Assembly: GCA_021582655.1 (NCBI GenBank)
Contig: CP091135.1
Span: 1,138,665 to 1,179,097 of the forward strand
Direction of reading: 5' to 3'
Source: Nitrosomonas sp.
Lineage (GTDB): Bacteria > Pseudomonadota > Gammaproteobacteria > Burkholderiales > Nitrosomonadaceae
DNA: 40,433 bases
Shown here: piece after piece, positions 2,359 to 40,227 of the stretch
How the letters are laid out: the number at the start of each line of letters is the position of its first letter
How positions within the stretch are numbered: the first letter of the stretch is position 1
The notes under the pieces: generated by a model
The model's database searches: none
What the model was told of the DNA's origin: nothing
The model's input: the letters and a program-made list of their open reading frames with translations, nothing else
Made by a program: the position numbers and the translations under genes

Positions 2359-4350
2359 TTATTCCCAGGATGATCCATTTATCTTGAAAATTTCGTTTTC
2401 CAATTGCCGTGATATTTTTTGCAGTAACGGTGAGATTTGATGCAGCAACGCTTCCGCAGCTTCCCAATCATTATCGTTATCGGTCTTCTCAAGCGCCTCG
2501 CACAAATCGGCAAAACCAATTGCACCAATCGTTCTGGCGGAAGATTTCAATTTATGCCCCAGTTGATTAAGTGCCGGCAAATCTTTAGCAGCTTGCGCAA
2601 TTTGCATTTCTGTAACCGTCGCATTGGCTACCTCAATGAATTTGAGCCCAAACTTACGAACCAATACGGTATTGTTATGAAACATGTGATACAGCATGGA
2701 CATGTCCACCGGTGCTGCATCATCTCCGGCAACATCGATTTCTTGCGCTACATCGGCACCGCCCCCGGAGGGATCGGTGACCCATTTCGCCAAAGTAAGG
2801 TACATCCGATTCGGATCAATCGGTTTCGGTATGAAATCATCCATCCCAAGTGACAGGCAGCGATTACGGTCATCCAAAGTCACATTACCCGTCATCGCAA
2901 TAATGCGCATTTGTGCAAATCTGGGATTTTTCCGGATACGGCGTGTGGTTTCCAAACCATCCATAACCGGCAAATGGGTATCCATTAACACCATATCAAA
3001 TGACCCGGCCGACAAACATTCCAGAGCTTCCTGTCCATTGTTGGCAATAATTGTCATCGCTCCGGTCAAGCCAAGTAAATCTTCGATTACCAATTGATTG
3101 AACGGATTATCCTCGACAATCAGGATACGGGTTTTTCTTAATTTCTTATGCGCTTCCGTCAATTCGGTAGTTTGTAGTGTGACATTTTCTTCAATCCGCT
3201 TTCCGCGCGTAAAGCGAGCGGTAAAGTAAAAAGTACTGCCACGCCCCAATTCACTTTCAACCCATATCTGCCCATCCATCATCTCAACCAATTGACGGCA
3301 AATCACTAAACCCAGTCCGCTGCCGCCATACTTTCGCTGTGTTGCATTATCCGCCTGTTGATAGGATTTAAACAATCGCTCAATCTGACCAACGCTCAAT
3401 CCAATGCCTGTATCGCATACCGAGAATTTCAGTATCACCGTGTTATCGACCAACTCCTCCGCGGTGATCGTCACTATCACCGATCCCTTTTCAGTGAATT
3501 TAACCGCATTCCCAGCCAAATTGATCAAAATTTGCCCCAATCGGATAGCATCGCCATGTAAAAAACAAGGAATCTCGTGCGGTATAGTAATCTCAAAATG
3601 AACACCCTTTTCACGTGCCAGATAACCAATCAATGAATCGACCCGGCCAAAGCAAGACCGTATGTCGAAATCTTCAAGCACCAATTCAAGTTTCCCGGCT
3701 TCGATACGGGAAAAATCAAGCACATCGTTAATAATGTCCAGCAACGACTTGGCTGCATGGTTGATTTTCTCGACATAATTCCTTTGCGTTTTATTCAAGT
3801 GAGTTTGCAAACATAAATGCGACAAACCGATAATGGCGTTCATCGGCGTACGGATTTCATGGCTCATGGTAGCAAGAAACATGCTTTTCGAATGGCTTGC
3901 CGACTCAGCGGCGCGACGAGCCACCAGCAACTCTTCGCTTAATCGATTGCGCTCCGCCGCCGCGGCCAGACGTGCCATCAACTCATTCGGATGAAACGGT
4001 TTAACCAGGTAGTCGGTAGCTCCGGAATTAATACCGTTAATAACGCTGTCGGTATCTTCTTCGGATGTCAACATAATCACAGGAAGGAATTTAAGATCAT
4101 CGCAATCACGTATTTTCCTACATACTTCAAAGCCATTTAAATCAGGCATGTTCACGTCCAGCAGTACCACATCGACAGGTTGATCTTTCAGAAAACGAAG
4201 CGCGCTATCGCCATTCTCAGCTTCAAAAACGGCGTAGTCGGATGGATTCAGAACTGTACGTACCAGCATGCGGTTAGTCGCCATATCATCAACAACAAGA
4301 ATGCGATAACGCTTGTCAGCTGATTTTCCTGGCTTATTTTCCTGATACAC
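2359..4350 (-). CDS. Hybrid sensor histidine kinase: REC-HisKA-HATPase-REC-HPt
   Basis: 663 residues with no membrane segment and no PAS domain. In order: a receiver domain (about 15-130, phospho-acceptor D65 in LLDVNMPD, K117 in VKPF); a coiled linker; a HisKA domain with H164 in MSHEIRTPMN; an ATPase domain with N-box N277/N281, DTGIG at 313-317 and GGSGLGL at 342-348; a second receiver (about 405-520, D457 in LMDTHLP); and a C-terminal phosphotransfer domain with H599 in LGHKLKSSART. A receiver at the N-terminus means another kinase, most likely the cluster CheA, could set its activity, and the phosphotransfer domain could hand phosphate to the receiver-EAL protein. The GTG start at 4348-4350 has an AAGGA box about 7 nt upstream. 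The 283-bp gap before it could hold a separate promoter. Confidence 0.93.
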   Translation of the reverse strand: MYQENKPGKSADKRYRILVVDDMATNRMLVRTVLNPSDYAVFEAENGDSALRFLKDQPVDVVLLDVNMPDLNGFEVCRKIRDCDDLKFLPVIMLTSEEDTDSVINGINSGATDYLVKPFHPNELMARLAAAAERNRLSEELLVARRAAESASHSKSMFLATMSHEIRTPMNAIIGLSHLCLQTHLNKTQRNYVEKINHAAKSLLDIINDVLDFSRIEAGKLELVLEDFDIRSCFGRVDSLIGYLAREKGVHFEITIPHEIPCFLHGDAIRLGQILINLAGNAVKFTEKGSVIVTITAEELVDNTVILKFSVCDTGIGLSVGQIERLFKSYQQADNATQRKYGGSGLGLVICRQLVEMMDGQIWVESELGRGSTFYFTARFTRGKRIEENVTLQTTELTEAHKKLRKTRILIVEDNPFNQLVIEDLLGLTGAMTIIANNGQEALECLSAGSFDMVLMDTHLPVMDGLETTRRIRKNPRFAQMRIIAMTGNVTLDDRNRCLSLGMDDFIPKPIDPNRMYLTLAKWVTDPSGGGADVAQEIDVAGDDAAPVDMSMLYHMFHNNTVLVRKFGLKFIEVANATVTEMQIAQAAKDLPALNQLGHKLKSSARTIGAIGFADLCEALEKTDNDNDWEAAEALLHQISPLLQKISRQLENEIFKINGSSWE

Positions 4351-27516: not shown

Positions 27517-28419
27517 TTATATCAACGATCCACCGCATACTCCCCGCACATCCACCCACAAATGCGGCAACCCCAATGCGGCGAGCCAATCAGGCCCTCC
27601 CTCTCCCTTCAACATGCCGATCGTCGATGCGCTGCCCGCAACCACACAAAATTCTCCGACGACACTAACCGCCGCCATACAATTAACCGGCCAACCGGTT
27701 TTGGGATTAAGCACATGGCCGTAGCGGACACCGTTCAGCGTGATACAGCGCTCGTAATCACCGCTGCTCGCCAGCGCACCGGAGTGTAACAGCAAGGTTT
27801 GTACAACGCCATCGGGCTTGCGCGGATGACGGATGGCAATCCGCCAAGGACTGCCGTCCGGATGCGGGCCGATGATTTTGATATCGCCGCCCAGATTGAC
27901 CAAACCGTGCCGTACCCCGACATCCCGGCACAGCGCTGCGGCACGGTCGACGGCATATTCTTTCACCACCCCCCCGAAATCGATTTCCATGTCAGGTACG
28001 GTAAAAACCAATACCGGACGCCTCCAATCGACTTTGTGCCAACCGATTTTATCCAGTAATACCTGTATGACGGCTTGGTCCGGTATCGTTCCGGATTTGA
28101 AATCCCAGGCACGACGGAGTATGCCGGAAGTGATGTCGAACAACCCGTCGCTCTGCTGATAGCATGTCGCGGCGTAATCCAGCAATCCGGCCGTTTCCTC
28201 GTCCACCTCGATGCTGCCGCCCTGCGTCGCGATACGATTCATCGCCGACAACAAACTATCGGCACGGTAACGCGAGTACTTGGTTTCCAGTCGCTGCACA
28301 TCGGCCATGACAAGTCGGGCCGTGCGCCCGGCTTCTTTTTCGTTGCATGCGTATAACTGTATCGCACACGGTGAACCCATTGCCTTGAAATCGAATTGAT
28401 AATATTTCAAGCGCCCCAT
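27517..28419 (-). CDS. apbE: FAD:protein FMN transferase (ApbE family)
   Basis: 300 residues. ApbE enzymes attach FMN from FAD to a threonine or serine of a target protein. Motifs: FKAMGSPCAIQLY at the N-terminus, DGLFDITSG (91-99), DFGGVVKEYAVD (147-158), LVNLGGDI (173-180) and GHVLNPKTG (234-242). Two oddities: no signal peptide or lipobox is seen, so it may act in the cytoplasm, and the usual KG of the DxGGxxKG motif is KE here (E154). It lies 26 bp after the DUF3570 gene and is the last gene of that operon. No canonical flavinylation motif (DxxxSGA-T/S) was spotted in the neighbouring envelope proteins, so its target is open. Confidence 0.9.
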   Translation of the reverse strand: MGRLKYYQFDFKAMGSPCAIQLYACNEKEAGRTARLVMADVQRLETKYSRYRADSLLSAMNRIATQGGSIEVDEETAGLLDYAATCYQQSDGLFDITSGILRRAWDFKSGTIPDQAVIQVLLDKIGWHKVDWRRPVLVFTVPDMEIDFGGVVKEYAVDRAAALCRDVGVRHGLVNLGGDIKIIGPHPDGSPWRIAIRHPRKPDGVVQTLLLHSGALASSGDYERCITLNGVRYGHVLNPKTGWPVNCMAAVSVVGEFCVVAGSASTIGMLKGEGGPDWLAALGLPHLWVDVRGVCGGSLI

Positions 28420-28445: not shown

Positions 28446-31217
28446 CTAGAATTGGTAGCTCCAAGTCGCAGCCAGCATCCCTTGGCGGTTAACCTGAAAC
28501 CCATTAAAATCGCTGCCAACCGGTTGTATCCACTCGAAGCCGAACCGATTTCCGGCAAACCGGCCACCAGGAATTTGCGCGTTGACACCGAAGCCGACAT
28601 CCCAGAATTGCCCGCCATAGTTCGACGGAAAGTCCATTGGACCGATACGCGCATTAAAAGTATCGAAATCCCGTTTTATTTCGCCTTGCAGGGTGTAAGC
28701 ACCTCGCACCGAAGCGGTCAACCAGTGAGTGACTTGATATCCGCCCCACGCGGTCGCTTGAAACATATCGCCCAAACGGTACCCGGATTTATTTTTATCT
28801 TCCAGTCGCTTAATGCCGCTGAATTGCGCTCCCCACAACCAACGCTGCAACTCACCGGCATACGTCAGGCTTGGCATGAAATCCCAGGTACCGCTGCCCA
28901 ATTGCATGCCGAAATGCATCAATCCGCCATCCGTTTTGAAAATACGCCGATTCTCGATATCCACCTTGCCGGTCGGTGCGCTTAAGCCTAAATTCACATG
29001 CACCCAATGACCGCGCGTATCGAGCAATTTAATCAGCGCTGAAAAATAAGTGTCGCCAACCGCACCGGTTTCATGACCGGCAGCGCTGTTATGCTCGTGA
29101 GTACCCGGCTTGGACGGCGGCGCACCTGCCAGCTTGCGTAAATTCATATCCATATCCATGAACGTGGGCATCAGCATCAAATTGAACCACTTCGTCGGCG
29201 CGTACATCAAGTCGACCATGTGCATGCGCATATCCATGTAGGTTGGTACCAACCTACATGGGATTTCATCGCTGCAACCTTGCTCGACGATCGTTTGATC
29301 GCTTACCTGTTGCGCGCCGTGCAACATGTTGCCGCCGGTCCAGTTATACATGAACCGGTAGCCCGCCATGAAATCGCCCGGCTTATCAAGCATATGTCCG
29401 AACATGATTCCCGCCGGCGGCACTCGGTAATGATGATGCATATGTGCATGTGCATGCGTTGTCGACGAACCCGCCGCACCACCGATCGGCAGCACTGCGG
29501 GTAAGGATTCGATATCAAATTTCACCGCAGCATTTGCCACGTAGTAATCGAAATCCGCAAAGCTGTTGTTTCCACCGCTGCCGATCTGCATTGCGCTCGC
29601 ACGGGTATAGTATTCGAAACCGGCCTCAAAGGCGACGCCGCGCATGATCGACTTGCTCAGCGACACGCCGCCGCTCAGTGCACCAAAACCGGCCAAACGA
29701 TGATCGCTGGAAAAATTTTCCGGCAATTTTGCCGCATCGAACAACACCGTTTTCGGCTGCACATTCAGTAACGCTTCATTGACCAGGTTACCGCTGCTGT
29801 CGACTAAATTGAAATTCGCATCACGGAAATACTGCACCGTGGGATCATTGGGATCGAACCAGATCTGACGCCCCAAGCTATCCACTTCATTTCTGCGGTA
29901 AGTTTGCTGCGAAAACATATACGGACGATAGAAGCTGGCGGCATCTTGCGAATAATAGCGGATCCGCGGCGTCAGCATCCAACCGCCGCCAAGCGGCTGC
30001 ACCCAGTTGGCGTCGAAAGTATGCGTGTTAATGCCCCAATCGTCAGTCGACAACCGATAACCCAAATGTAATGCCGCATCGAATGTATCGATATACTGAA
30101 TATATTTGGCGCTCAGTGCGACTTGATTACGAAAATTCGGCCGTTGTTCCAACAGCGCGCGCAGATCGCCGGTAATCGGTGCCGATTGTCCGTTATTTAA
30201 TTGCAACGGATCGACAAAAATCACCGACATCACCTTATAGGGATTTTCCAAATAACCATTGCTGTAGGTATACCCCGCATTGGCTTCAAGCAAAGCATTC
30301 CTGTTCAGAATCTGCGTTACACCCAGATTGGCTGTCCAGTCCTGCCGATTACCTCGTAAAATTTCGCTCTTTCCACCATCGATTCTCTCAATCTGATGCA
30401 AAAAAGCATTCTTAGTGATATACGGTGAAGCATCGTGATCGAGAATGGCACCGATATTGCTGTTCGAGTACCCCGCGCCATACTTGACGCTGGTTAATTT
30501 TTGATTGAAATCGACACGGCCGCTGATGTTACCGAAACTGGACTTATAGTCCCGCTCCCGCGAGAAACCGCCGCTGACGTTAAGTGCCGCTTCATTCCAT
30601 TCGCGGCTTAAGCCGAAACTGGCTTGATTCCTCGTCTCCGGTGAAGCTGACGATAACACCATCACCGACCGCGGGTCTCTGACTGATGGTCCGCCGAGAC
30701 TCGCATCCGATGTCAATGGTGTTAAATTGCGATCCAGCATCAGATTCGGATTGGTTATGATCGGCGACGCACCGACAACGGTAACTCCCGTCGGCGTATT
30801 GGCAAAAATCGGATTATTCCCCATTGCAGCCAGGGGCGAGCTGGTAATCGGTGTTGCACCTGACCAAGTGTCCTGCGTATAACTGAAATTGAACTTGGTT
30901 CGATCGGTGAGTGAGAAAACGCCGCTGCCGTGCAACACATCGGCGCTGATCGGCTTTAGGTTATTGGGAACATTGACTAAATCACGCTTTCCTTCCTGGT
31001 AGCGGCTGAATTGAAAATTAATTCGATTATCGTCCGCCGCCTGCGCGGAAGCCAGCATCAGTCCGGGCAGCATCAACGCAGCGGAAGTCAGTGCTTGTAA
31101 TGCTTTATTGTTACCGGAAGCTGCGACAGTCTCCGCTTGATGCGGTAAAAGCAGCATTGATACAGATCCCACCGCGGACTGCTGTTCGCCAACTACCGCA
31201 GGTAATGCACCATTCAC
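28446..31217 (-). CDS. DUF3570 outer-membrane barrel fused to a second His/Met-rich barrel domain
   Basis: 923 residues. An unusual 35-residue N-terminal stretch precedes a signal peptide ending ASAQA (60). Residues about 61-570 are a DUF3570 domain (INFQFSRYQEGKRDL near its start), with amphipathic strands typical of an outer-membrane barrel. A linker with HAHAHMHHH (588-596) leads to a second domain (about 600-923) resembling the MetA-type 'transporter' barrels found near metal-resistance genes; it holds Met-rich runs MDMRMHM (661-667) and MLMPTFMDMDM (681-691), plausible Cu(I) ligands. The C-terminus ends in aromatic Phe (WSYQF), as outer-membrane barrels do. The GTG at 31215-31217 is the only start before an in-frame stop four codons upstream; M21 is an alternative. 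Function unknown. Confidence 0.85.
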   Translation of the reverse strand: MNGALPAVVGEQQSAVGSVSMLLLPHQAETVAASGNNKALQALTSAALMLPGLMLASAQAADDNRINFQFSRYQEGKRDLVNVPNNLKPISADVLHGSGVFSLTDRTKFNFSYTQDTWSGATPITSSPLAAMGNNPIFANTPTGVTVVGASPIITNPNLMLDRNLTPLTSDASLGGPSVRDPRSVMVLSSASPETRNQASFGLSREWNEAALNVSGGFSRERDYKSSFGNISGRVDFNQKLTSVKYGAGYSNSNIGAILDHDASPYITKNAFLHQIERIDGGKSEILRGNRQDWTANLGVTQILNRNALLEANAGYTYSNGYLENPYKVMSVIFVDPLQLNNGQSAPITGDLRALLEQRPNFRNQVALSAKYIQYIDTFDAALHLGYRLSTDDWGINTHTFDANWVQPLGGGWMLTPRIRYYSQDAASFYRPYMFSQQTYRRNEVDSLGRQIWFDPNDPTVQYFRDANFNLVDSSGNLVNEALLNVQPKTVLFDAAKLPENFSSDHRLAGFGALSGGVSLSKSIMRGVAFEAGFEYYTRASAMQIGSGGNNSFADFDYYVANAAVKFDIESLPAVLPIGGAAGSSTTHAHAHMHHHYRVPPAGIMFGHMLDKPGDFMAGYRFMYNWTGGNMLHGAQQVSDQTIVEQGCSDEIPCRLVPTYMDMRMHMVDLMYAPTKWFNLMLMPTFMDMDMNLRKLAGAPPSKPGTHEHNSAAGHETGAVGDTYFSALIKLLDTRGHWVHVNLGLSAPTGKVDIENRRIFKTDGGLMHFGMQLGSGTWDFMPSLTYAGELQRWLWGAQFSGIKRLEDKNKSGYRLGDMFQATAWGGYQVTHWLTASVRGAYTLQGEIKRDFDTFNARIGPMDFPSNYGGQFWDVGFGVNAQIPGGRFAGNRFGFEWIQPVGSDFNGFQVNRQGMLAATWSYQF
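29234..29261. repeat. Perfect 28-bp palindrome inside the DUF3570 gene
   Basis: The half CCATGTAGGTTGGT is followed at once by its exact reverse complement, centred on a KpnI-like GGTACC. It encodes P653 to M661 of the protein, in the second barrel domain just before the MDMRMHM run. A perfect 14-bp arm in coding sequence is unexpected, but the encoded residues fit the domain, so its function, if any, is open. Confidence 0.8.
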
Positions 31218-31257: not shown

Positions 31258-31476
31258 TCAGTAGCAACCGCATCCACCGCCACCTTCGGAAGAATAGGTA
31301 CTGGCCGCCGCCTCACGACTGCTGTAACTATGCATGCGTATGGTGCTTTGCAGTGGGTAAGGATCCACCGACATCTGTGGTTTAGCCAGATTTCCGCGCT
31401 CCCAAACCGCCACATGCGTGCAACCGGAAATTGCATACACTGCCAAGAAGATCAATATCGTATACAAAAATCGCAT
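31258..31476 (-). CDS. Small DUF4266 lipoprotein with Gly/Cys tail
   Basis: 72 residues from the ATG at 31474-31476. A lipoprotein signal peptide ends in the lipobox AISGC (C19). The mature part starts CTHVAVWERGNLAKPQM, the core of the DUF4266 family, and ends in SSEGGGGCGCY. The tail with two cysteines spaced by one glycine (C69, C71) could bind a metal, form a disulfide relay with the TlpA-like protein, or be a site of modification. It lies between the thioredoxin gene (15 bp) and the DUF3570 gene (40 bp). DUF4266, DUF3570, thioredoxin and ApbE genes are recurring neighbours in many bacteria; the role of the small protein is unknown. Confidence 0.85.
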   Translation of the reverse strand: MRFLYTILIFLAVYAISGCTHVAVWERGNLAKPQMSVDPYPLQSTIRMHSYSSREAAASTYSSEGGGGCGCY

Positions 31477-31491
31477 TGATTTACACAATGG

Positions 31492-32013
31492 CTAAGGTTT
31501 TTCTGCCAGAAACTGCTGCACCATAGCACGCAACTGCTCGCTTTCACCTTGTCTGAAACCTTGGTGGATATAACGGACATTGCCGTGACGATCGATGAGA
31601 AAGGAAGATGGCATGGCGATCACCCCGAAATCTTTCGCACACTGCTTGGTTTGATCGGTCACGATCTCAAAATCGGCTGGTACCTTACTCAGAAACGCCA
31701 CGGCATCCATTTTTTTCTCATCCAGATTGACACCGATCACACGTAAACCCTGTGCTTTGAATTCCTGCTCCAATTGATTTAGGAACGGAAACGATTTCAC
31801 ACAAGGTGGGCACCATGATGCCCAGAAGTCAACATAAACAACATCACCTTGCAGTGCATGCAAGCCTTTCGCCGAATCACCCTCCAATGTTGCAAAAGTA
31901 CAATCCGGCGCTGGAATATCGACTTGCTGCGTTGCTGAAGCCGAATTGCCGAATAAGGCCAAGACGATCAGAAAAAGTAATTTTAATGAATGGTTCCGCT
32001 GTTTTTTTAACAT
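31492..32013 (-). CDS. TlpA-like periplasmic thioredoxin
   Basis: 173 residues. A signal peptide (LKLLFLIVLALFGNSASA) leads to a thioredoxin fold of the TlpA/ResA kind with the redox motif WASWCPPC (C68, C71) and the cis-proline in IAMPSSFLID. Extra cysteines at 38 and 109 or so (CTF, KQCAKDF) may add a second pair. Such proteins keep cysteines or copper sites of envelope proteins reduced. Here the likely clients are the Cys-tailed lipoprotein downstream or the two-cysteine secreted protein upstream. The gene starts 23 bp after the upstream stop, within one operon. Confidence 0.92.
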   Translation of the reverse strand: MLKKQRNHSLKLLFLIVLALFGNSASATQQVDIPAPDCTFATLEGDSAKGLHALQGDVVYVDFWASWCPPCVKSFPFLNQLEQEFKAQGLRVIGVNLDEKKMDAVAFLSKVPADFEIVTDQTKQCAKDFGVIAMPSSFLIDRHGNVRYIHQGFRQGESEQLRAMVQQFLAEKP

Positions 32014-32036: not shown

Positions 32037-32495
32037 TTACTGGAACTGCAACACACCAATATCCGTTGCTGTATGACCACCCTTAGCCGACTCGCAGTGA
32101 TATTCGATCTCGAAAGTTCGCTCACCGGCCGCCGTTTTATTGACCATCATGTAATAAACACCGTCACCGCCTTGCAATGCAATGTAATCGCTGTATGCCG
32201 CATCCCCTGATACGTTATCCGTGATACTGACGGCTTTACTTCCTTTAAAAAGCTGCAAATTGACCAACAGGCCATCAACCGGCGGAGAAACATCTTTGAT
32301 TCTTGCCAGTATGTGATCTGTAGGCTCACCACCTTCACTTGAGCAAGTCACAAATGCAAATCCAGTAAAAGTTTTCGATATTCCTTCCGCATCCATTGTG
32401 GCTCCGGCATTATGCGCACCACCAGACCCGGCGAAACCGACAGTGGAAACGATCATAATCGTTGCCAAGATTTTACCGAATTTCGATTTATTCAT
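32037..32495 (-). CDS. Secreted protein of unknown function, first gene of the DUF3570 operon
   Basis: 152 residues. The N-terminus (MNKSKFGKILATIMIVSTVG) is a signal peptide with probable cleavage near GSGGA, which would leave His as the first residue of the mature protein (HNAGATMDAEG). Two cysteines, in FVTCSS and EYHCES, may form a disulfide. The rest looks like an all-beta domain (LLVNLQLFKG, GVYYMMVNKTAAGERTFEIEY). I do not recognise the family. An AAAGGA/GAGGGG stretch before the ATG supports the start. It has its own promoter with an operator identical in half-sites to that of the YcnI-like gene upstream, so it is co-regulated with it. Confidence 0.8.
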   Translation of the reverse strand: MNKSKFGKILATIMIVSTVGFAGSGGAHNAGATMDAEGISKTFTGFAFVTCSSEGGEPTDHILARIKDVSPPVDGLLVNLQLFKGSKAVSITDNVSGDAAYSDYIALQGGDGVYYMMVNKTAAGERTFEIEYHCESAKGGHTATDIGVLQFQ

Positions 32496-32587: not shown

Positions 32588-32634
32588 ATTATCACTTGAG
32601 TTACAGCAAAAAAACAATGCGACATATTGTCGCA
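32588..32634 (-). promoter_or_regulatory. Promoter with palindromic operator for the DUF3570-apbE operon
   Basis: On the minus strand, the perfect palindrome TGCGACA-ATA-TGTCGCA (32618-32634) is followed directly by a -35 box TTGTTT (32612-32617), an 18-nt spacer and a -10 box GATAAT (32588-32593). The predicted transcript start is near 32581, leaving a leader of about 86 nt. The same arrangement occurs at 33630-33675 before the YcnI-like gene. The operator centre falls near -45, a position suited to an activator touching polymerase or to a repressor blocking the -35 box. Confidence 0.65.
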
Positions 32635-32677
32635 GCTATTGGAGAGGCTCCAGCAGATCCTGAATCTGAAAAAGAAC

Positions 32678-32698
32678 GTGCGGATCGGTGATCCGCAC
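32678..32698 (-). terminator. Intrinsic terminator after the YcnI-like gene
   Basis: On the minus strand GTGCGGATC, a three-base loop ACC and GATCCGCAC form a perfect 9-bp GC-rich stem, followed by GTTCTTTTT. It lies about 30 bp after the stop of the YcnI-like gene and about 45 bp upstream of the next operator, so it separates two transcription units. Confidence 0.75.
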
Positions 32699-32729
32699 TA
32701 AGAGGGAGGTATCAAGCATTTTATGTGGG

Positions 32730-33527
32730 TTACTTCGGCCAAACCTGGTCACCGTCGACAACCACTTTCAAGTCACGATTCAGTTGCGCCGCGGAAGGCT
32801 TGACGATGATATCCAATCCATCCCCACAAGCAGCAGGCAATGCCGCTATGGTCCTATTAACTTTCAGTGTCGCGGGCGAATCATACCCATGCAAACCTTC
32901 AATCTCGAAGTTGGAACCGACAGCAGGAACCCATAATTGCACGGTCGCATTGCTAAAACCGCTTTTATCGGTAACTTCACACACATCGGCGATGGACACT
33001 ACAAATGTCACGCTCTTAGCGCACGAATCCGGATTTATCACTACGCCTGCAGTGGTGAACGGCAGCAACCCGCGGTAACCCGCTTTTAATTTACCGCCAC
33101 CAGCCCAGAAACCCAGCTTATTACCTAAAGAATCCTTAATATATTCCTGCAGCTCGAATACGTCCTTACTCTGAATCAGCGTCACCGGACTTGCCCAGTT
33201 GGTTACGAAATCAGCCAACATTCCGTCGTGTGCCGTGGCAACCACCGACGAATCGCCACCGGCAGGTTTGGTGGTAATAATGGAATCTTTGCCATCCGGA
33301 AAAACAACCACGGTCCCTATCGTATCGATCGTTGAAGCACCGTCGGTTTCATTCTGACAACCATGTGCAATCACAACATCGTTATAGGTACTGCCATGGT
33401 TTGCATTATTTTCGTCGATTGCCGGTACTTTCAAGCGCGTATGCGCAAACGCATTTTGTGTTGCAATAACCGCAAAGGCGATCACCGCCAAAATCACAAG
33501 CCATTCAAATTGGCGACTACCGTTCAT
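32730..33527 (-). CDS. Secreted YcnI/DUF1775-like protein, possible copper binder
   Basis: 265 residues. A signal peptide (LVILAVIAFAVIATQNAFA) ends so that the mature protein begins HTRLKVPAIDENN, placing a histidine at the N-terminus as in copper proteins CopC and YcnI. VVIAHGCQNETDG then a Thr and VVVFPDG resemble the HGC-T-P-G pattern of YcnI (DUF1775), though the protein is longer than usual and the match is partial. Four further cysteines could form disulfides. The ATG follows GGAGATAGGG. It forms its own unit with a terminator after it and a promoter whose operator matches that of the next operon. A copper chaperone or scavenger is a reasonable guess, not proven. Confidence 0.72.
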   Translation of the reverse strand: MNGSRQFEWLVILAVIAFAVIATQNAFAHTRLKVPAIDENNANHGSTYNDVVIAHGCQNETDGASTIDTIGTVVVFPDGKDSIITTKPAGGDSSVVATAHDGMLADFVTNWASPVTLIQSKDVFELQEYIKDSLGNKLGFWAGGGKLKAGYRGLLPFTTAGVVINPDSCAKSVTFVVSIADVCEVTDKSGFSNATVQLWVPAVGSNFEIEGLHGYDSPATLKVNRTIAALPAACGDGLDIIVKPSAAQLNRDLKVVVDGDQVWPK

Positions 33528-33629
33528 TTAACCCTATCTCCATAAAAATGGTTTTTTAATTCTTTCTATGTTTCAATGTATCTGATGCCGGTTAAGTGCA
33601 CTCGGCCAGTAAAACCTATAGCGAAGCGG

Positions 33630-33675
33630 ATTATCAGGATTCACCCACCCGAGATCAATGCGACAAAATGTCGCA
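33630..33675 (-). promoter_or_regulatory. Promoter with palindromic operator for the YcnI-like gene
   Basis: On the minus strand the perfect palindrome TGCGACA-TTT-TGTCGCA (33659-33675; flanking A/T extend it by one pair) is followed by -35 TTGATC (33653-33658), a 17-nt spacer and -10 GATAAT (33630-33635). The predicted start is near 33623, giving a leader of about 96 nt. Operator half-sites, the position of the operator against the -35 box and the -10 sequence are the same as at 32588-32634. Confidence 0.65.
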
Positions 33676-33740
33676 TCGGGTTTTATTAACGAATAACCAA
33701 TTGAATATTAATGAATGTCAATCATAACCATCTGATCAAA

Positions 33741-33757
33741 CGCGACAATTTGTCACA
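33741..33757. promoter_or_regulatory. Second, imperfect copy of the operator
   Basis: CGCGACA-ATT-TGTCACA differs from the perfect operator at two outer positions and keeps the GCGACA-N3-TGTC core. Its centre is 82 bp upstream of the centre of the perfect copy, close to eight helical turns, which would permit looping or cooperative binding. Confidence 0.5.
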
Positions 33758-34262: not shown

Positions 34263-35741
34263 ATGAATGCAAAACTAAATGCTGCAACCAGCGATCTCGG
34301 CTGGCATTTTGATAATAGCTATACTCGCTTACCGGATTTTCTATTCGTAACACTAAATCCTGTACCAGTACGAGCGCCACAACTTATAGTCCTGAATCAT
34401 AAACTTGCCGGATTACTGGGTTTGGAAACCAAGAAGTTATCGAAAACCGAGGCCGCCATGCTATTTTCCGGCAGCAAACTGCCAGATGCGGCGCAGCCGA
34501 TCGCACAGGCCTATGCGGGTCATCAATTCGGTCATTTCACGATGTTAGGTGACGGACGAGCATTATTGATCGGCGAGCATATTACACCTGCCGGGAAGCG
34601 ATTTGACGTTCAATTAAAAGGTTCAGGACAAACCAAATTTTCCCGGCGCGGGGATGGACGGGCAGCCCTTGGGCCGATGCTGCGGGAATATATTATCAGT
34701 GAAGCGATGAGCGCACTTGGCATCCCGACCACTCGCAGCCTGGCCGTTGTTACTACCGGCGAAGCAATCATGCGGGAAACTTTATTACCGGGTGCCATCT
34801 TAACTCGTGTCGCGGCCAGCCACATTCGCGTGGGCACCTTCGAATATGCCGCGGGATTAGGAAATACCGAAGGCATTAAAACGCTTGCTGATTATACAAT
34901 CAGCCGCCATTATCCCGATCTTTTCGATAGCGATAATCGGTATCTTGCATTTCTGCAGGGTGTAATCGAACGACAGGCTTCGCTAATAGCGAAATGGATG
35001 CTTGTCGGATTTATTCACGGCGTCATGAATACTGACAATATGGCCATTAGCGGAGAAACCATTGATTATGGTCCTTGCGCATTCATGGATGCCTATGATA
35101 ACAATACTGTATTTAGTTCAATTGATTATCATGGACGTTACCGCTTTCGCAATCAACCTCATATAGCCCAATGGAATCTCGCACGCTTGGCAGAAACATT
35201 GCTGCCGCTCATCGATGCAAAGTCAGACAAAGCTATTGGATTAGCCGAGCAAGCAATTAACACTTTTCCTGAGTTATTCCAGAAACATTGGTTGACCGGG
35301 ATGCGAAGAAAACTGGGTTTATTCACCGAAGAAGCCGCAGATGTACAGTTAATTGAAGATTTGCTTGCATGGATGCAAAAACATCGCGCCGATTACACCA
35401 ACAGCTTCCGCGCTTTGATATCACCAACATTACCTGCGGATGAACTATTTCATGGTGCTGAATTCGTCGCATGGTTTACAAATTGGAAAGCCAGACTTGT
35501 ACGTCAATCCGGGCTTGAGGAATCATCTCTTTCCATAATGCAAGCTAACAATCCGGTAATTATTCCACGAAATCACCGCGTCGAAGCGGCACTTGCCGCC
35601 GCTACACATAACGATTATTCATTGTTTCATCAACTACTCGCAGCGGTAACAAATCCTTTCGACAACGCACCAAAATATCACCAGTTCACAACTCCTCCGC
35701 TGCCTTCTGAATGTGTGCATCAAACATTCTGTGGAACATAG
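34263..35741 (+). CDS. selO: Protein adenylyltransferase SelO (YdiU family)
   Basis: 492 residues, near the usual bacterial length. SelO is a pseudokinase-fold enzyme that transfers AMP from ATP to Ser, Thr or Tyr of target proteins in redox stress. Motifs: [18 protein letters not shown] (83-100), the nucleotide-binding lysine in [19 protein letters not shown] (116-134), and the catalytic segment HGVMNTDN (D258) with [10 protein letters not shown] (D268). The C-terminus ends QTFCGT, with the cysteine that replaces selenocysteine of animal homologues. The ATG at 34263 has no recognisable Shine-Dalgarno; the leader is AT-rich and contains DnaA boxes about 100 bp upstream. Codon usage and composition look more AT-rich than in the genes to the left. 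Confidence 0.95.
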
Positions 35742-37771: not shown

Positions 37772-39814
37772 CTAACGGACATATTCGTCTGAAAATACGG
37801 ATATTATTTGCTCACGATTAAGTGCATCAATTTGCTTTTCTAACACTCCGATATCGGACCATCCAAACTGATCCCAAGCCGGGATCCAGCGTGCACGCAT
37901 GTATCCGTTTTTATCAAGCATAAACTCGATATGCTCCAGATTAACTCCTTTTCCGATTATATCTGGATAACCAAGTGTGCGCCGCCACAACATATAACTG
38001 CTAACAATTTCATCTCCACCATGCAAAATTAAATGAAACGGCAAAGATTCCCTTATTTCCGTCAACTCACCAGTGCCTAATTCCGTAATCGGTACCGCGA
38101 TAACCTCAGTATTTTTATTCTTTAATTGGCCGTATGCTTGCGATAATTGCGCCAATCTTTCATTCGATTGCGGCCAAGTGAATAGGATAAGCAATACGTT
38201 TCCTTTGCTGCGATATTCTTGTAAGTTGCCTTGATATCCATCCTGCCCGGTAAAAGAAAAAACTGGCGGCCTTGCAAAGGCTTTATCAGGAACAACATTT
38301 GGCGACAAAATTCTAGCCTGATACCCTCTGGACAATGCATGAAGATAGTTCACCAAATCCCATCGATCATCATCAGTCAATTTTTCAACAAAACCAGGCA
38401 TATCAGTACCCTTCATGCCATAAGTAATCCAGTTATAGAAATCACCGGGGGTATGATCCACAGTATGAAGCTCCATCAGCAGATCCGGCAATTTTGTGGA
38501 TAATGTTCTCGATTTAATCCCGTTTCCCATACCTTGTACACCATGGCATTCCAAACAATGCTGCGCATAGAGTGCCGAACCATTCGCGATTGAAGCAGCA
38601 TCAAACGAAACCGTAGGCTTACGATAGGTTTCTGAATATGCCTCTATCGCGAGAGGAGGCAAGATAATCACAAATGAAGCGATAACAAACAACACCGGTA
38701 TACCAATTAGCCGCTTCAGACTCCATTGTCGCGCAAAACCAATTACTGCTACAGATGCAGCAAGTATCAAAACTACAAAACCACTCCACACTTGCAAAGC
38801 AACATTGGGCTTATTCCACGTGGCGGTAATTGAGAATCTGAAGGGAAAAAACCAATCATCAATAGATGCATTTTTTACAGGCTCGGCATTGGCAATTAAT
38901 GTCGCAATAAGTAGCAAAATGAATGCGAAAAGAAATTCAACACCAACCCAATTCCTCATACCTTGCAAACCACGCCGCATTTCAGGTATTGCACCATTAT
39001 TAGCCAATAGAGGTAACCAATAGGACCGTATCGAAGCTGCTATGATTAAAATAACCCCAAGAAGCGCGACCTTGCCACTTAGCAACAACCCATAGGATGT
39101 AGCAACCAAAGCTGCATAAAAACCTTCGAGCAAGTGATTTGCAATCCAAATCCCGGTCACGATAATCAAACACATTATCGGCAATGCAACTGCAGAGAAA
39201 CGCTTTATGGTCTCAATCACAAATGACTTCGACTCAGGAAGATTCAGGGTATGCTTATCATCATAGATAAGAAGCAAAAGCGCTGGTAGTGCGCCAAACC
39301 AAGCGCCGGCAAAAATCAAGTGAAGTGCATAGGGTACATACGAGGAAAGCGATAATTCATCGGCTGCAATATGACTGGTCAATGAACCGACAAGAAGCGG
39401 AACAGTCGCAAAAAAAGCACATAATACATATCGCCAACGTGTTTTTTCAGCCGCATTAATCAGATATAAAACAAAAAATATCAGCAACAATGATGCTGCC
39501 ACACGCCATAACCAAACCTGACCCACGTGTGTATCACGTAAAATGTTAAACCAGACACTTTGTTGCCACAGATTGCTCATAGAGCCCGTCATCTGTGCAA
39601 CGATGGTGATCAGGCCAACAAGCAAACAAACTGGAATACTAAATGCCAGCCATAAAAACAATCGCTCTAAACGCTGTATCCAACTCCCTGAATAAACTAG
39701 ATGAACAAACTTATTGGAATGAGCAATCGCTATGAATAAACAACTTCCCAATACTACAAAATTCGCCGCAAGTTGTAACCATCGTGCAATTGTTGCAATA
39801 ACCTCCACCATCAT
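37772..39814 (-). CDS. copD: CopD-type copper protein fused to cytochrome c and a thioredoxin-like domain
   Basis: 680 residues in three parts. Residues 1-390 form a polytopic CopD domain with about nine or more membrane helices (HLIFAGAWFGALPALLLLIY is typical). Residues about 405-500 are a c-type cytochrome domain with CLECH (C420-H424) and probable axial ligand M472 (GTDMPGF). Residues about 515-675 look like a SCO/peroxiredoxin-type thioredoxin fold, but the active-site cysteines are missing (FTWPQS at 545-550). CopD is thought to import copper from CopC. The fused haem domain suggests electron transfer to copper or to the partner. This fused form is what I expect after amo genes in Nitrosomonas-type bacteria. 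The start overlaps the copC stop (TAATG). Confidence 0.9.
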   Translation of the reverse strand: MMVEVIATIARWLQLAANFVVLGSCLFIAIAHSNKFVHLVYSGSWIQRLERLFLWLAFSIPVCLLVGLITIVAQMTGSMSNLWQQSVWFNILRDTHVGQVWLWRVAASLLLIFFVLYLINAAEKTRWRYVLCAFFATVPLLVGSLTSHIAADELSLSSYVPYALHLIFAGAWFGALPALLLLIYDDKHTLNLPESKSFVIETIKRFSAVALPIMCLIIVTGIWIANHLLEGFYAALVATSYGLLLSGKVALLGVILIIAASIRSYWLPLLANNGAIPEMRRGLQGMRNWVGVEFLFAFILLLIATLIANAEPVKNASIDDWFFPFRFSITATWNKPNVALQVWSGFVVLILAASVAVIGFARQWSLKRLIGIPVLFVIASFVIILPPLAIEAYSETYRKPTVSFDAASIANGSALYAQHCLECHGVQGMGNGIKSRTLSTKLPDLLMELHTVDHTPGDFYNWITYGMKGTDMPGFVEKLTDDDRWDLVNYLHALSRGYQARILSPNVVPDKAFARPPVFSFTGQDGYQGNLQEYRSKGNVLLILFTWPQSNERLAQLSQAYGQLKNKNTEVIAVPITELGTGELTEIRESLPFHLILHGGDEIVSSYMLWRRTLGYPDIIGKGVNLEHIEFMLDKNGYMRARWIPAWDQFGWSDIGVLEKQIDALNREQIISVFSDEYVR

Positions 39815-40227
39815 TACTGCATTCTAACTTTCACATTAAAATCATAATTAGATTCAATAACATGCCCATCCACAGACATGACACGATAATGCACGGTATA
39901 ACGCCCGGGCTCAATCTGAGGCAATTTCAATACAAGTGACTTCGGATCATCGGCAACAGCTTCCGGACTATTTTCGGTTACAGCATTCTTGTTCGCATCA
40001 CGTACGACGACTGACGCATAGGTACCTTCAATCTTCTCATTAAACCAAAGTTGAATCTGCTTCGGTGACACATTTAAAGTTGATCTACGTGGCGGATCGG
40101 ATTTAACTAAAGTAGCGTGCGCCATAGCCACTCCGGCCTGCAATGACAAAGCAAATAACATCAATAATATAGCCGAGTTAATTATCACTCTTTTGACAAT
40201 ATGATCAAGCGATTGTTTGATAATCAC
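39814..40227 (-). CDS. copC: Periplasmic copper-binding protein CopC
   Basis: 137 residues. The signal peptide ends at VAMA so that the mature protein begins HATLVKSDPPRRS, giving the N-terminal histidine used as Cu(II) ligand. The second site motif SVDGHVIESNY supplies the other conserved Asp and His. The protein carries copper in the periplasm and hands it to CopD, coded directly downstream with a 1-nt overlap. The GTG at 40225-40227 follows an AAAGGA box at a spacing of about 6. The 93-bp gap to the gene upstream has no terminator with a U-tract, so it could share the upstream transcript. Confidence 0.94.
   Translation of the reverse strand: MIIKQSLDHIVKRVIINSAILLMLFALSLQAGVAMAHATLVKSDPPRRSTLNVSPKQIQLWFNEKIEGTYASVVVRDANKNAVTENSPEAVADDPKSLVLKLPQIEPGRYTVHYRVMSVDGHVIESNYDFNVKVRMQ

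What the first reader, a model, noticed from the sequence alone, without database searches (positions are those of the whole stretch)
32588..33757. Two promoters share an identical operator (TGCGACA-N3-TGTCGCA) placed the same way
Both the YcnI-like gene and the downstream secreted-protein/TlpA/DUF4266/DUF3570/ApbE operon have a perfect 17-bp palindrome touching a TTG-starting -35 box, then GATAAT after 17 or 18 nt. The distance from operator to -10 is 24 and 25 nt. A third, weaker copy lies further upstream at 33741-33757, and a terminator at 32678-32698 separates the units. This is strong internal evidence for one regulator controlling both units. The GACA...TGTC core faintly recalls CusR/CopR boxes (ATGACAA-N2-TTGTCAT), but the spacing differs, so the regulator is unknown.
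Basis: seen in the sequence. Interest (0 to 1): 0.75.

Follow-up and report, generated by a model that had tools for sequence, protein, structure and literature searches.

The report
RegA redox-regulator boxes before metal genes
Two promoters in an ammonia-oxidising bacterium carry the same DNA landing site, and comparison with many relatives points to the known RegB/RegA redox-sensing switch as the protein that uses it, linking the cell's redox state to genes for metal-related secreted proteins.

Summary
A weaker copy lies at 33741-33757. The claim of one shared regulator is supported; "regulator unknown" can be replaced. The palindrome fits published RegA/PrrA/RegR boxes. In 120 genomes of the order it occurs in 29 of 50 with a RegA orthologue and 1 of 70 without. 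It stands just upstream of regB-regA in most regBA loci examined, though not in this genome. In the family it abuts -35 with -10 typically at +23, and precedes YcnI-like genes, the 152-aa/TlpA/DUF4266/DUF3570/ApbE unit, FecI-type sigma factors, TonB receptors and TonB. Best explanation: phosphorylated RegA activates both units from a site centred near -44. Binding, direction of control and signal are inferred, not shown. The operator is a new member of a known kind; its novelty is a crisp palindrome with fixed promoter geometry that lets part of the RegA regulon of nitrifiers be read from sequence.

The parts
32618..32634 (.). operator 1 (TGCGACATATTGTCGCA), RegA-type box upstream of the 152-aa/TlpA/DUF4266/DUF3570/ApbE unit
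   Evidence: exact match; 1 mismatch to RegR box, 0 to RegA consensus
32612..32617 (-). -35 TTGTTT abutting operator 1
   Evidence: sequence
32588..32593 (-). -10 GATAAT, 24 nt after operator 1
33659..33675 (.). operator 2 (TGCGACAAAATGTCGCA), RegA-type box upstream of the YcnI-like gene
   Evidence: exact match; 0 mismatches to RegR and RegA consensuses
33653..33658 (-). -35 TTGATC abutting operator 2
   Evidence: TTGATN conserved in L041-L043
33630..33635 (-). -10 GATAAT, 23 nt after operator 2
   Evidence: conserved in L041-L043
33741..33757 (.). distal weaker operator, 82 bp upstream of operator 2 (2 mismatches); a TAGAAT lies 22 nt downstream on the + strand
   Evidence: site pair spaced 80-81 bp also in L041, L042, L043
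32678..32698 (-). intrinsic terminator-like hairpin after the YcnI-like gene
32730..33527 (-). secreted YcnI-like protein, 265 aa; predicted mature N-terminal His1 invariant in both alignments, His27 invariant in one (33 rows) and at least 90% in the other (26 rows)
   Evidence: model pLDDT 88; best Foldseek hit 3esm; signal peptide by eye
32037..32495 (-). 152-aa protein with signal-peptide-like start, first gene after operator 1, no Pfam or NCBIfam match
   Evidence: relatives also carry the operator
31492..32013 (-). TlpA/ResA-like thioredoxin-fold protein
   Evidence: Pfam Redoxin/AhpC-TSA; NCBIfam ResA/DsbE/TlpA models below cut-off
31258..31476 (-). DUF4266 small protein ending GGGCGCY
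   Evidence: Pfam PF14086, E 4.6e-18; sequence
28446..31217 (-). DUF3570 protein (family shown elsewhere to be flavinylated by ApbE)
   Evidence: Pfam PF12094, E 3.1e-108; PMC8238504 passages
27517..28419 (-). ApbE FMN transferase
   Evidence: Pfam PF02424, E 1.7e-70

Best explanation
The two palindromes are boxes for RegA, the Fis-type response regulator of the redox-sensing RegB/RegA (PrrB/PrrA, RegS/RegR, ActS/ActR) two-component system, encoded elsewhere in this genome (C1:1786786-1788610). RegB reads the quinone pool through its GGxxNPF segment and phosphorylates RegA. A RegA dimer binds GCGAC-N5-GTCGC, centred near -44, directly against a poor -35 box, and helps RNA polymerase at both promoters. 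The secreted YcnI-like protein and the 152-aa/TlpA/DUF4266/DUF3570/ApbE unit are thereby switched together. Shown here: the sites, their preferred promoter geometry, their conservation, their fit to published RegA-family boxes, their co-occurrence with regA, and their recurrence before regBA in relatives. Inferred: binding, activation rather than repression, and the signal (known for RegB in other bacteria).
For: (1) Operator 2 matches the RegR box GNGRCRTTNNGNCGC exactly and operator 1 with 1 mismatch (consensuses from PMC5506826 passages). All 136 distinct sites lie within 2 mismatches of the RegR, PrrA and RegA consensuses, against 0.4%, 0.8% and 14.6% of shuffled sites; since those sites were picked with the palindrome pattern, this says only that the pattern lies inside the published boxes. 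(2) Co-occurrence in 120 order genomes: site in 29 of 50 with a RegA orthologue and 1 of 70 without (Fisher 2.8e-13); 25 of 46 versus 1 of 70 outside the window's genus. (3) The 30 best-scoring of those 50 regA loci, taken without regard to the motif: 21 hold a site at up to 1 mismatch, 18 of them 315-385 nt upstream of the GGxxNPF codon, i.e. before regB, against 5 of 600 base-shuffled loci. Under the stricter test (RegB frame and 450 nt upstream held): 11 of 18, and 19 of 27 in family loci. (4) Own RegA: Fis-type HTH with LNMHRRTLQR identical to PrrA 1umq; best NCBIfam hits ActR/PrrA/RegA and ActS/PrrB/RegB. (5) Of 84 sites oriented only by the neighbouring gene, 28 have a strict -10 at exactly 23 nt (6 on the opposite side). 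(6) RegA controls iron-uptake genes in Methylomonas (PMC13274454 abstract and one section).
Against: The window's own genome has no box before its regB: best match 5 mismatches in the scanned 260 nt. None was found either in G014 (N. europaea-like; up to 2 mismatches) or in G074, G016, G087 (up to 1 mismatch). G054 (84% complete) has 4 exact-pattern sites but only weak response-regulator matches, best E 3.4e-13. RegA and RegB score below NCBIfam's equivalog cut-offs (196.8 of 250 and 273.5 of 350 bits). 21 of 50 genomes with a RegA orthologue have no exact site. Published RegA boxes are degenerate with variable half-site spacing, unlike this palindrome. In Methylomonas, ChIP showed direct binding only at feo, not at the TonB receptor or tonB promoters. 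The co-occurrence test does not correct for relatedness. No binding or expression data exist here for this organism.
Confidence: 0.83

Rival explanations
1. RegA binds the boxes but represses: the operator abuts the -35 element and blocks RNA polymerase when RegA is phosphorylated.
For: The operator ends exactly where TTG of the -35 begins, close enough for steric exclusion; RegA-family proteins are recalled to act both ways.
Against: The distance to the -10 has a sharp peak at 23 nt, which an activator needs and a repressor does not; the -35 boxes are poor (TTGTTT, TTGATC); in At. ferrooxidans RegA bound mostly upstream of -35, apparently without competing with polymerase (PMC5506826 passages).
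Confidence: 0.2
2. A different palindrome-binding regulator (metal-responsive or CRP/FNR, CusR/CopR-type) uses the site and merely travels with regBA.
For: Targets include metal-related genes: TonB receptors, FecI-type sigma factors, a CtaG-type assembly protein and YcnI-like proteins; the window's regB has no box; G054 has sites without a strong RegA match.
Against: 7-8 mismatches to the CusR box for the three window sites and none of 136 sites within 2; the spacing is odd and 1 bp longer than the recalled CRP site; site presence tracks regA across families and the site sits before regB repeatedly.
Confidence: 0.1
3. The palindromes are transcription terminators or mobile hairpin repeats rather than operators.
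For: Both are flagged as terminator-like by scan, and operator 1 is followed by a T-run on the minus strand; the sites often occur in pairs.
Against: A canonical terminator-like hairpin already precedes operator 1 (32698-32678); a -10 recurs at a preferred distance; many sites have no T-run (seen, output partly cut); the spacing of paired sites varies from 53 to 166 bp; 134 of 136 sites lie outside ORFs of more than 150 aa.
Confidence: 0.05

Closest known systems
RegR box of Bradyrhizobium japonicum (GNGRCRTTNNGNCGC)
   Same: Same GCGRC-N5-GNCGC frame; operator 2 matches exactly
   Different: Published putative boxes have imperfect half-sites and variable spacing (PMC4064962 passages); here a perfect 17-bp palindrome at a preferred place
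PrrA site of Rhodobacter sphaeroides (YSCGGC-N5-GWCRMA)
   Same: Same half-site spacing of 5; 130 of 136 family sites within 1 mismatch; recognition helix LNMHRRTLQR of 1umq identical to this genome's RegA
   Different: Known targets are photosynthesis and respiration genes (recalled); here metal-related secreted and flavinylation genes
RegA control of iron uptake in Methylomonas sp. DH-1 (PMC13274454)
   Same: RegB/RegA raises feo, tonB and a TonB receptor (abstract and one section read); TonB receptors and TonB also follow the box in Nitrosomonadaceae loci
   Different: No box was found by term search in its text; only feo was bound directly; the 6 methanotroph-type YcnI-like loci lack the box
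DUF3570/ApbE/thioredoxin/DUF4266 flavinylation clusters (PMC8238504)
   Same: The same four gene types occur in the downstream operon here
   Different: The passages read describe no regulator

Membership tests
RegA/PrrA/RegR-type operator | GCGNC and GNCGC half-sites 5 bp apart, fitting a published consensus | tested here: met
   0 and 1 mismatch to the RegR box for operators 2 and 1
RegA/PrrA/RegR-type operator | Genome encodes a RegB/RegA pair with the quinone motif and a Fis-type HTH | tested here: met
   L140 2287-3558 (GGSTNPF) and 3551-4111 (Response_reg, HTH_8); best NCBIfam hits ActS/PrrB/RegB and ActR/PrrA/RegA
RegB/RegA protein family | Scores above NCBIfam equivalog cut-offs NF033791/NF033792 | tested here: not met
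   196.8 of 250 bits and 273.5 of 350 bits; by far the best hits but below the cut-offs
RegA/PrrA/RegR-type operator | Site co-occurs with regA across genomes | tested here: met
   29 of 50 RegA+ against 1 of 70 RegA- genomes; counter-example G054 in the family
RegA/PrrA/RegR-type operator | Autoregulatory site before regBA | tested here: inconclusive
   Present before regB in 18 of 30 order loci and 19 of 27 testable family loci; absent in the window's own genome
RegA/PrrA/RegR-type operator | Direct RegA binding to the site | not testable with these tools
   needs EMSA or footprinting
CusR/CopR box | ATGACAA-N2-TTGTCAT | tested here: not met
Fur-controlled promoters | 19-bp Fur box near the promoter | tested here: not met
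   No overall excess in the 150 nt downstream of 84 oriented sites: 4.8% against 3.4% of resampled segments at 13 of 19 or better; two single sites reach 16 and 17 of 19, so Fur may join at a few (Fur consensus recalled)
YcnI/DUF1775 | Pfam or NCBIfam match | tested here: not met
   0 families even at E 10 in Pfam and E 1 in NCBIfam
YcnI/DUF1775 | YcnI-like fold with N-terminal metal-binding His | tested here: inconclusive
   Best Foldseek hit 3esm, E 2.8e-3, probability 1.00, TM 0.35 by query and 0.56 by target, rmsd 10.4; no hit at E 0.001 or better; 3esm as a YcnI-domain structure is recalled; predicted mature His1 invariant

The most novel reading that the evidence does not exclude
In several Nitrosomonas-type loci the RegA box drives tandem series of short promoter units without long reading frames (4 in N. 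aestuarii, several in N. marina-like loci), next to YcnI-like genes, and most units share a TCCTCCAYR element. If these are small RNAs, nitrifiers would have a redox-switched bank of tandem regulatory RNAs, comparable in logic to iron-controlled RyhB/PrrF, inside a RegA regulon whose box is strict enough to be read from sequence.
Probability: 0.28. Interest if true: 0.75.

Novelty: new member of a known kind. Interest (0 to 1): 0.57.

Why it matters
RegB/RegA is a global redox switch whose regulon has been hard to read from sequence because the published boxes are degenerate; an At. ferrooxidans study says its search for RegA sites failed, likely for that reason (PMC5506826 passages). A study of the betaproteobacterium Accumulibacter states that no RegAB sites had been identified there (PMC6446978 passage). 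In this family a strict 17-bp palindrome, often 23 nt before -10, marks many candidate targets, so at least the strong part of the regulon can be listed by scanning (weaker sites would be missed). That would tie redox state to TonB/FecI-type uptake, secreted YcnI-like proteins and the flavinylated DUF3570 system in ammonia oxidisers, whose enzymes depend on copper and iron. My searches for Nitrosomonas with RegA or RegB listed nothing on this by title; of the papers listed I opened passages of two (PMC6446978, PMC8415719).

Tried and rejected
Fur as the regulator: many targets look iron-related and a fur-like gene (by reading) lies beside one site (L072), but no overall excess of Fur boxes was found downstream of the sites, and the box reported before N. 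europaea fur is unrelated in sequence (PMC3050691 passages). CusR/CopR: rejected by mismatch count. CRP/FNR: rejected on spacing (17-bp odd palindrome; consensus recalled, no call).

Literal search for the half-sites in papers gave 194 papers; none of the 20 listed looked relevant by title. A three-sequence DNA alignment put one row in the wrong orientation; I drew nothing from it. RNA structure in the ORF-less units: 3 predicted pairs, none with compensatory change, and no Rfam match in 5 sources, so small RNAs remain a guess. The 6 methanotroph-type homologues of the YcnI-like gene among the 70 loci lack the box.

Rows dropped before counts: 6 of 76 loci with under 600 nt upstream, 2 of the 83 downstream proteins were left out (one runs into masked letters, one near-duplicate), loci without a RegB frame or with under 450 nt upstream (3 of 30 family, 12 of 30 order) in the strict tally, while the '18' counts every order locus with a site 315-385 nt before GGxxNPF. 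The table used site counts read by hand and RegA presence; that the 120 genomes are G000, G016, G074, G087 and G125-G240 is my inference from the handles. The 20 sites were picked by me, with a preference for genomes with several sites and A/T-rich centres. The geometry sites came from loci partly chosen because they hold the motif; orientation was set by gene position only. One search kept the best 80 of 122 relatives. One search shows 25 of 38 families. The output was cut, so some of its loci were not seen in full.

Full report
OBSERVATION. On the minus strand each perfect copy is followed at once by TTG of a -35 box and then by GATAAT after 24 nt (operator 1) or 23 nt (operator 2). The 2.46-Mb genome holds the exact form three times and forms with one mismatch twice; the relaxed form TGYGRCANNNTGYCRCA occurs 4 times, its reversed control 0 times. 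Other places in this genome, with genes named by reading the sequence only, are a paralogue of the YcnI-like gene (C1:201737; homology), a His-rich amidohydrolase (2132523), the upstream side of a moeB-like gene (2111000/2111015, two overlapping boxes) and a place between an HD-GYP-like gene and a kinase-like gene (13225).

RELATIVES. The window's genus is taken to be Nitrosomonas because its homologues lie in records of that name. In 125 genomes of the family, 106 hold TGYGACA-N3-TGTCRCA, and 4 hold the reversed control. The YcnI-like protein has homologues in 78 of 125 genomes, all in the window's genus. Of 30 such loci, 18 have a box (up to 3 mismatches) within 600 nt upstream; the other 12 are second genes of tandem pairs. 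In public records (76 loci, most named Nitrosomonas, 6 methanotroph-type, a few without genus name), 56 of 70 testable loci have a box at up to 1 mismatch, and none has one in the 550-nt stretch inside the gene used as control. The 14 without comprise the 6 methanotroph-type loci and 8 others, of which 7 appear to be the same tandem second genes (six by equal contig length, one by near-equal length and position). The 152-aa first gene of the DUF3570 unit also follows a box in other genomes (L023, L024, L031, L032, L042).

PROMOTER GEOMETRY. From 136 distinct sites, 84 could be oriented by the position of the neighbouring gene alone. A strict -10 (at least 5 of 6) stands at exactly 23 nt in 28, against 6 on the opposite side. 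A relaxed -10 at 22-26 nt stands in 51, against 12. The positions directly after the operator read TTG (T 86%, T 64%, G 60%), so the operator abuts the -35 and the spacer is 17. With a start about 7 nt after -10, the operator centre lies near -44, where activators that touch the sigma subunit usually sit (inference from established knowledge). In three close orthologues (L041-L043) TTGATN and GATAAT are conserved.

THE REGULATOR. Scanning 300 genomes of the order and fetching 20 sites that I picked from it showed boxes beside a RegB-like kinase (GGxxNPF) and/or a Fis-type response regulator in five loci, L093, L094, L103, L104 and L109 (in L109 the box lies on the far side of regA, before a TonB receptor). 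Three tests followed. First, co-occurrence: in 120 order genomes a RegA orthologue (E at most 1e-40) is present in 50; the box occurs in 29 of those and in 1 of the 70 others, Fisher 2.8e-13, and 8.7e-12 outside the genus. Relatedness of genomes is not corrected for, although the sample spreads over some 50 families. Second, the 30 best-scoring of those 50 regA loci, without regard to the box: 21 hold one at up to 1 mismatch, 18 of these 315-385 nt before the GGxxNPF codon, that is just upstream of regB; 5 of 600 base-shuffled loci hold one. With the stricter tally it is 11 of 18. In the family, 19 of 27 testable regA loci hold one at the same place, those of genera g3 and g4 as TGCGGCA-N3-TGCCGCA. 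Third, the published boxes: operator 2 is a perfect RegR box and operator 1 misses by one. The box therefore behaves like a RegA site. Against this, the window's own regB has no box, nor do four other genomes of the genus examined (G014, G074, G016, G087), so autoregulation is not universal; a strong RegA match is missing from G054, which has 4 sites but is 84% complete. The window's RegA and RegB fall short of NCBIfam's equivalog cut-offs although those models are clearly the best hits.

WHAT IS CONTROLLED. First genes after boxes with a fitting -10 in fetched family loci numbered 83. Pfam on 81 of them (25 of 38 families shown) found 6 ECF sigma factors, 5 amidohydrolases, 3 TonB-dependent receptors, 2 MauG-type peroxidases, 2 TonB proteins and single cases of CtaG/Cox11, PepSY and a histidine kinase. 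Roughly 35 of the others look YcnI-like by their N-terminal sequence (my reading). The set was assembled from loci fetched for the motif or for the YcnI-like gene, so the proportions are not a census. The downstream unit is 152-aa protein, TlpA-like, DUF4266, DUF3570, ApbE. DUF3570 proteins are flavinylated by ApbE, and such clusters often include a thioredoxin-like protein and DUF4266 (PMC8238504, passages). Independent support for RegA acting on metal uptake comes from Methylomonas sp. DH-1, where RegB/RegA raises feo (bound directly by ChIP) and, perhaps indirectly, tonB and a TonB receptor (PMC13274454, abstract and one section).

THE YCNI-LIKE PROTEIN. It matches no Pfam or NCBIfam model. 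An AlphaFold2 model from 33 aligned sequences has mean pLDDT 88. Its best Foldseek hit is 3esm (E 2.8e-3, probability 1.00, TM 0.35 by query and 0.56 by target, rmsd 10.4; no hit at E 0.001 or better), which by recall is a YcnI-domain structure. If the signal peptide is cut where it appears by eye, the protein starts with His; this His1 is invariant in both alignments (26 and 33 rows) and His27 in the 33-row one, at least 90% in the other. A copper or iron site is plausible but untested.

VERDICT. The finding is right and its open question has a likely answer. The operator is a member of the RegA/PrrA/RegR box kind; what is unusual is its strict symmetry and its preferred promoter position. 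Activation by RegA~P is my best mechanism (about 0.7 given RegA). Direct binding was not tested.

Noticed in passing
In L085 (3 of 4 units), L078, L198, L206, L208 and L218 a TCCTCCAYR element follows 127-168 nt after the start of the box, and several units share GGATAGCCCTCT. No Rfam match in the 5 sources scanned and no conserved fold. Possible small RNAs.
   Followed up: partly
L007:6001-6032 and L008:4211-4242 (own genome): Two boxes overlap by two bases to form a 32-bp palindrome-like element (the first half is weaker in L008), each with a -10-like hexamer (TAAATT, TAGAAT) 23 nt downstream.
   Followed up: no
L072:18141: A box lies between a TonB receptor and a fur-like gene; the adjoining sequence matches by eye a primer printed for N. 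europaea NE0616 (PMC3050691 passages), so G014 is probably N. europaea or close to it.
   Followed up: partly
L093, L094, L103, L104, L109: Outside the family the box near regBA is shared with or close to a TonB-dependent receptor or PepSY gene: between divergent genes in L094, L103 and L104, neighbouring in L093 and L109 (genes named by reading). This suggests an old link between RegBA and outer-membrane uptake.
   Followed up: partly
window 33741-33757: The distal weak site has TAGAAT 22 nt downstream on the + strand and could serve a divergent promoter toward the gene at 34263. Paired sites spaced 80-81 bp recur in L041, L042 and L043.
   Followed up: partly
window 37772-40227: CopC and CopD-cytochrome fusion genes lie nearby; no box at up to 3 mismatches lies in the 206 nt held upstream of the CopC gene.
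   Followed up: no
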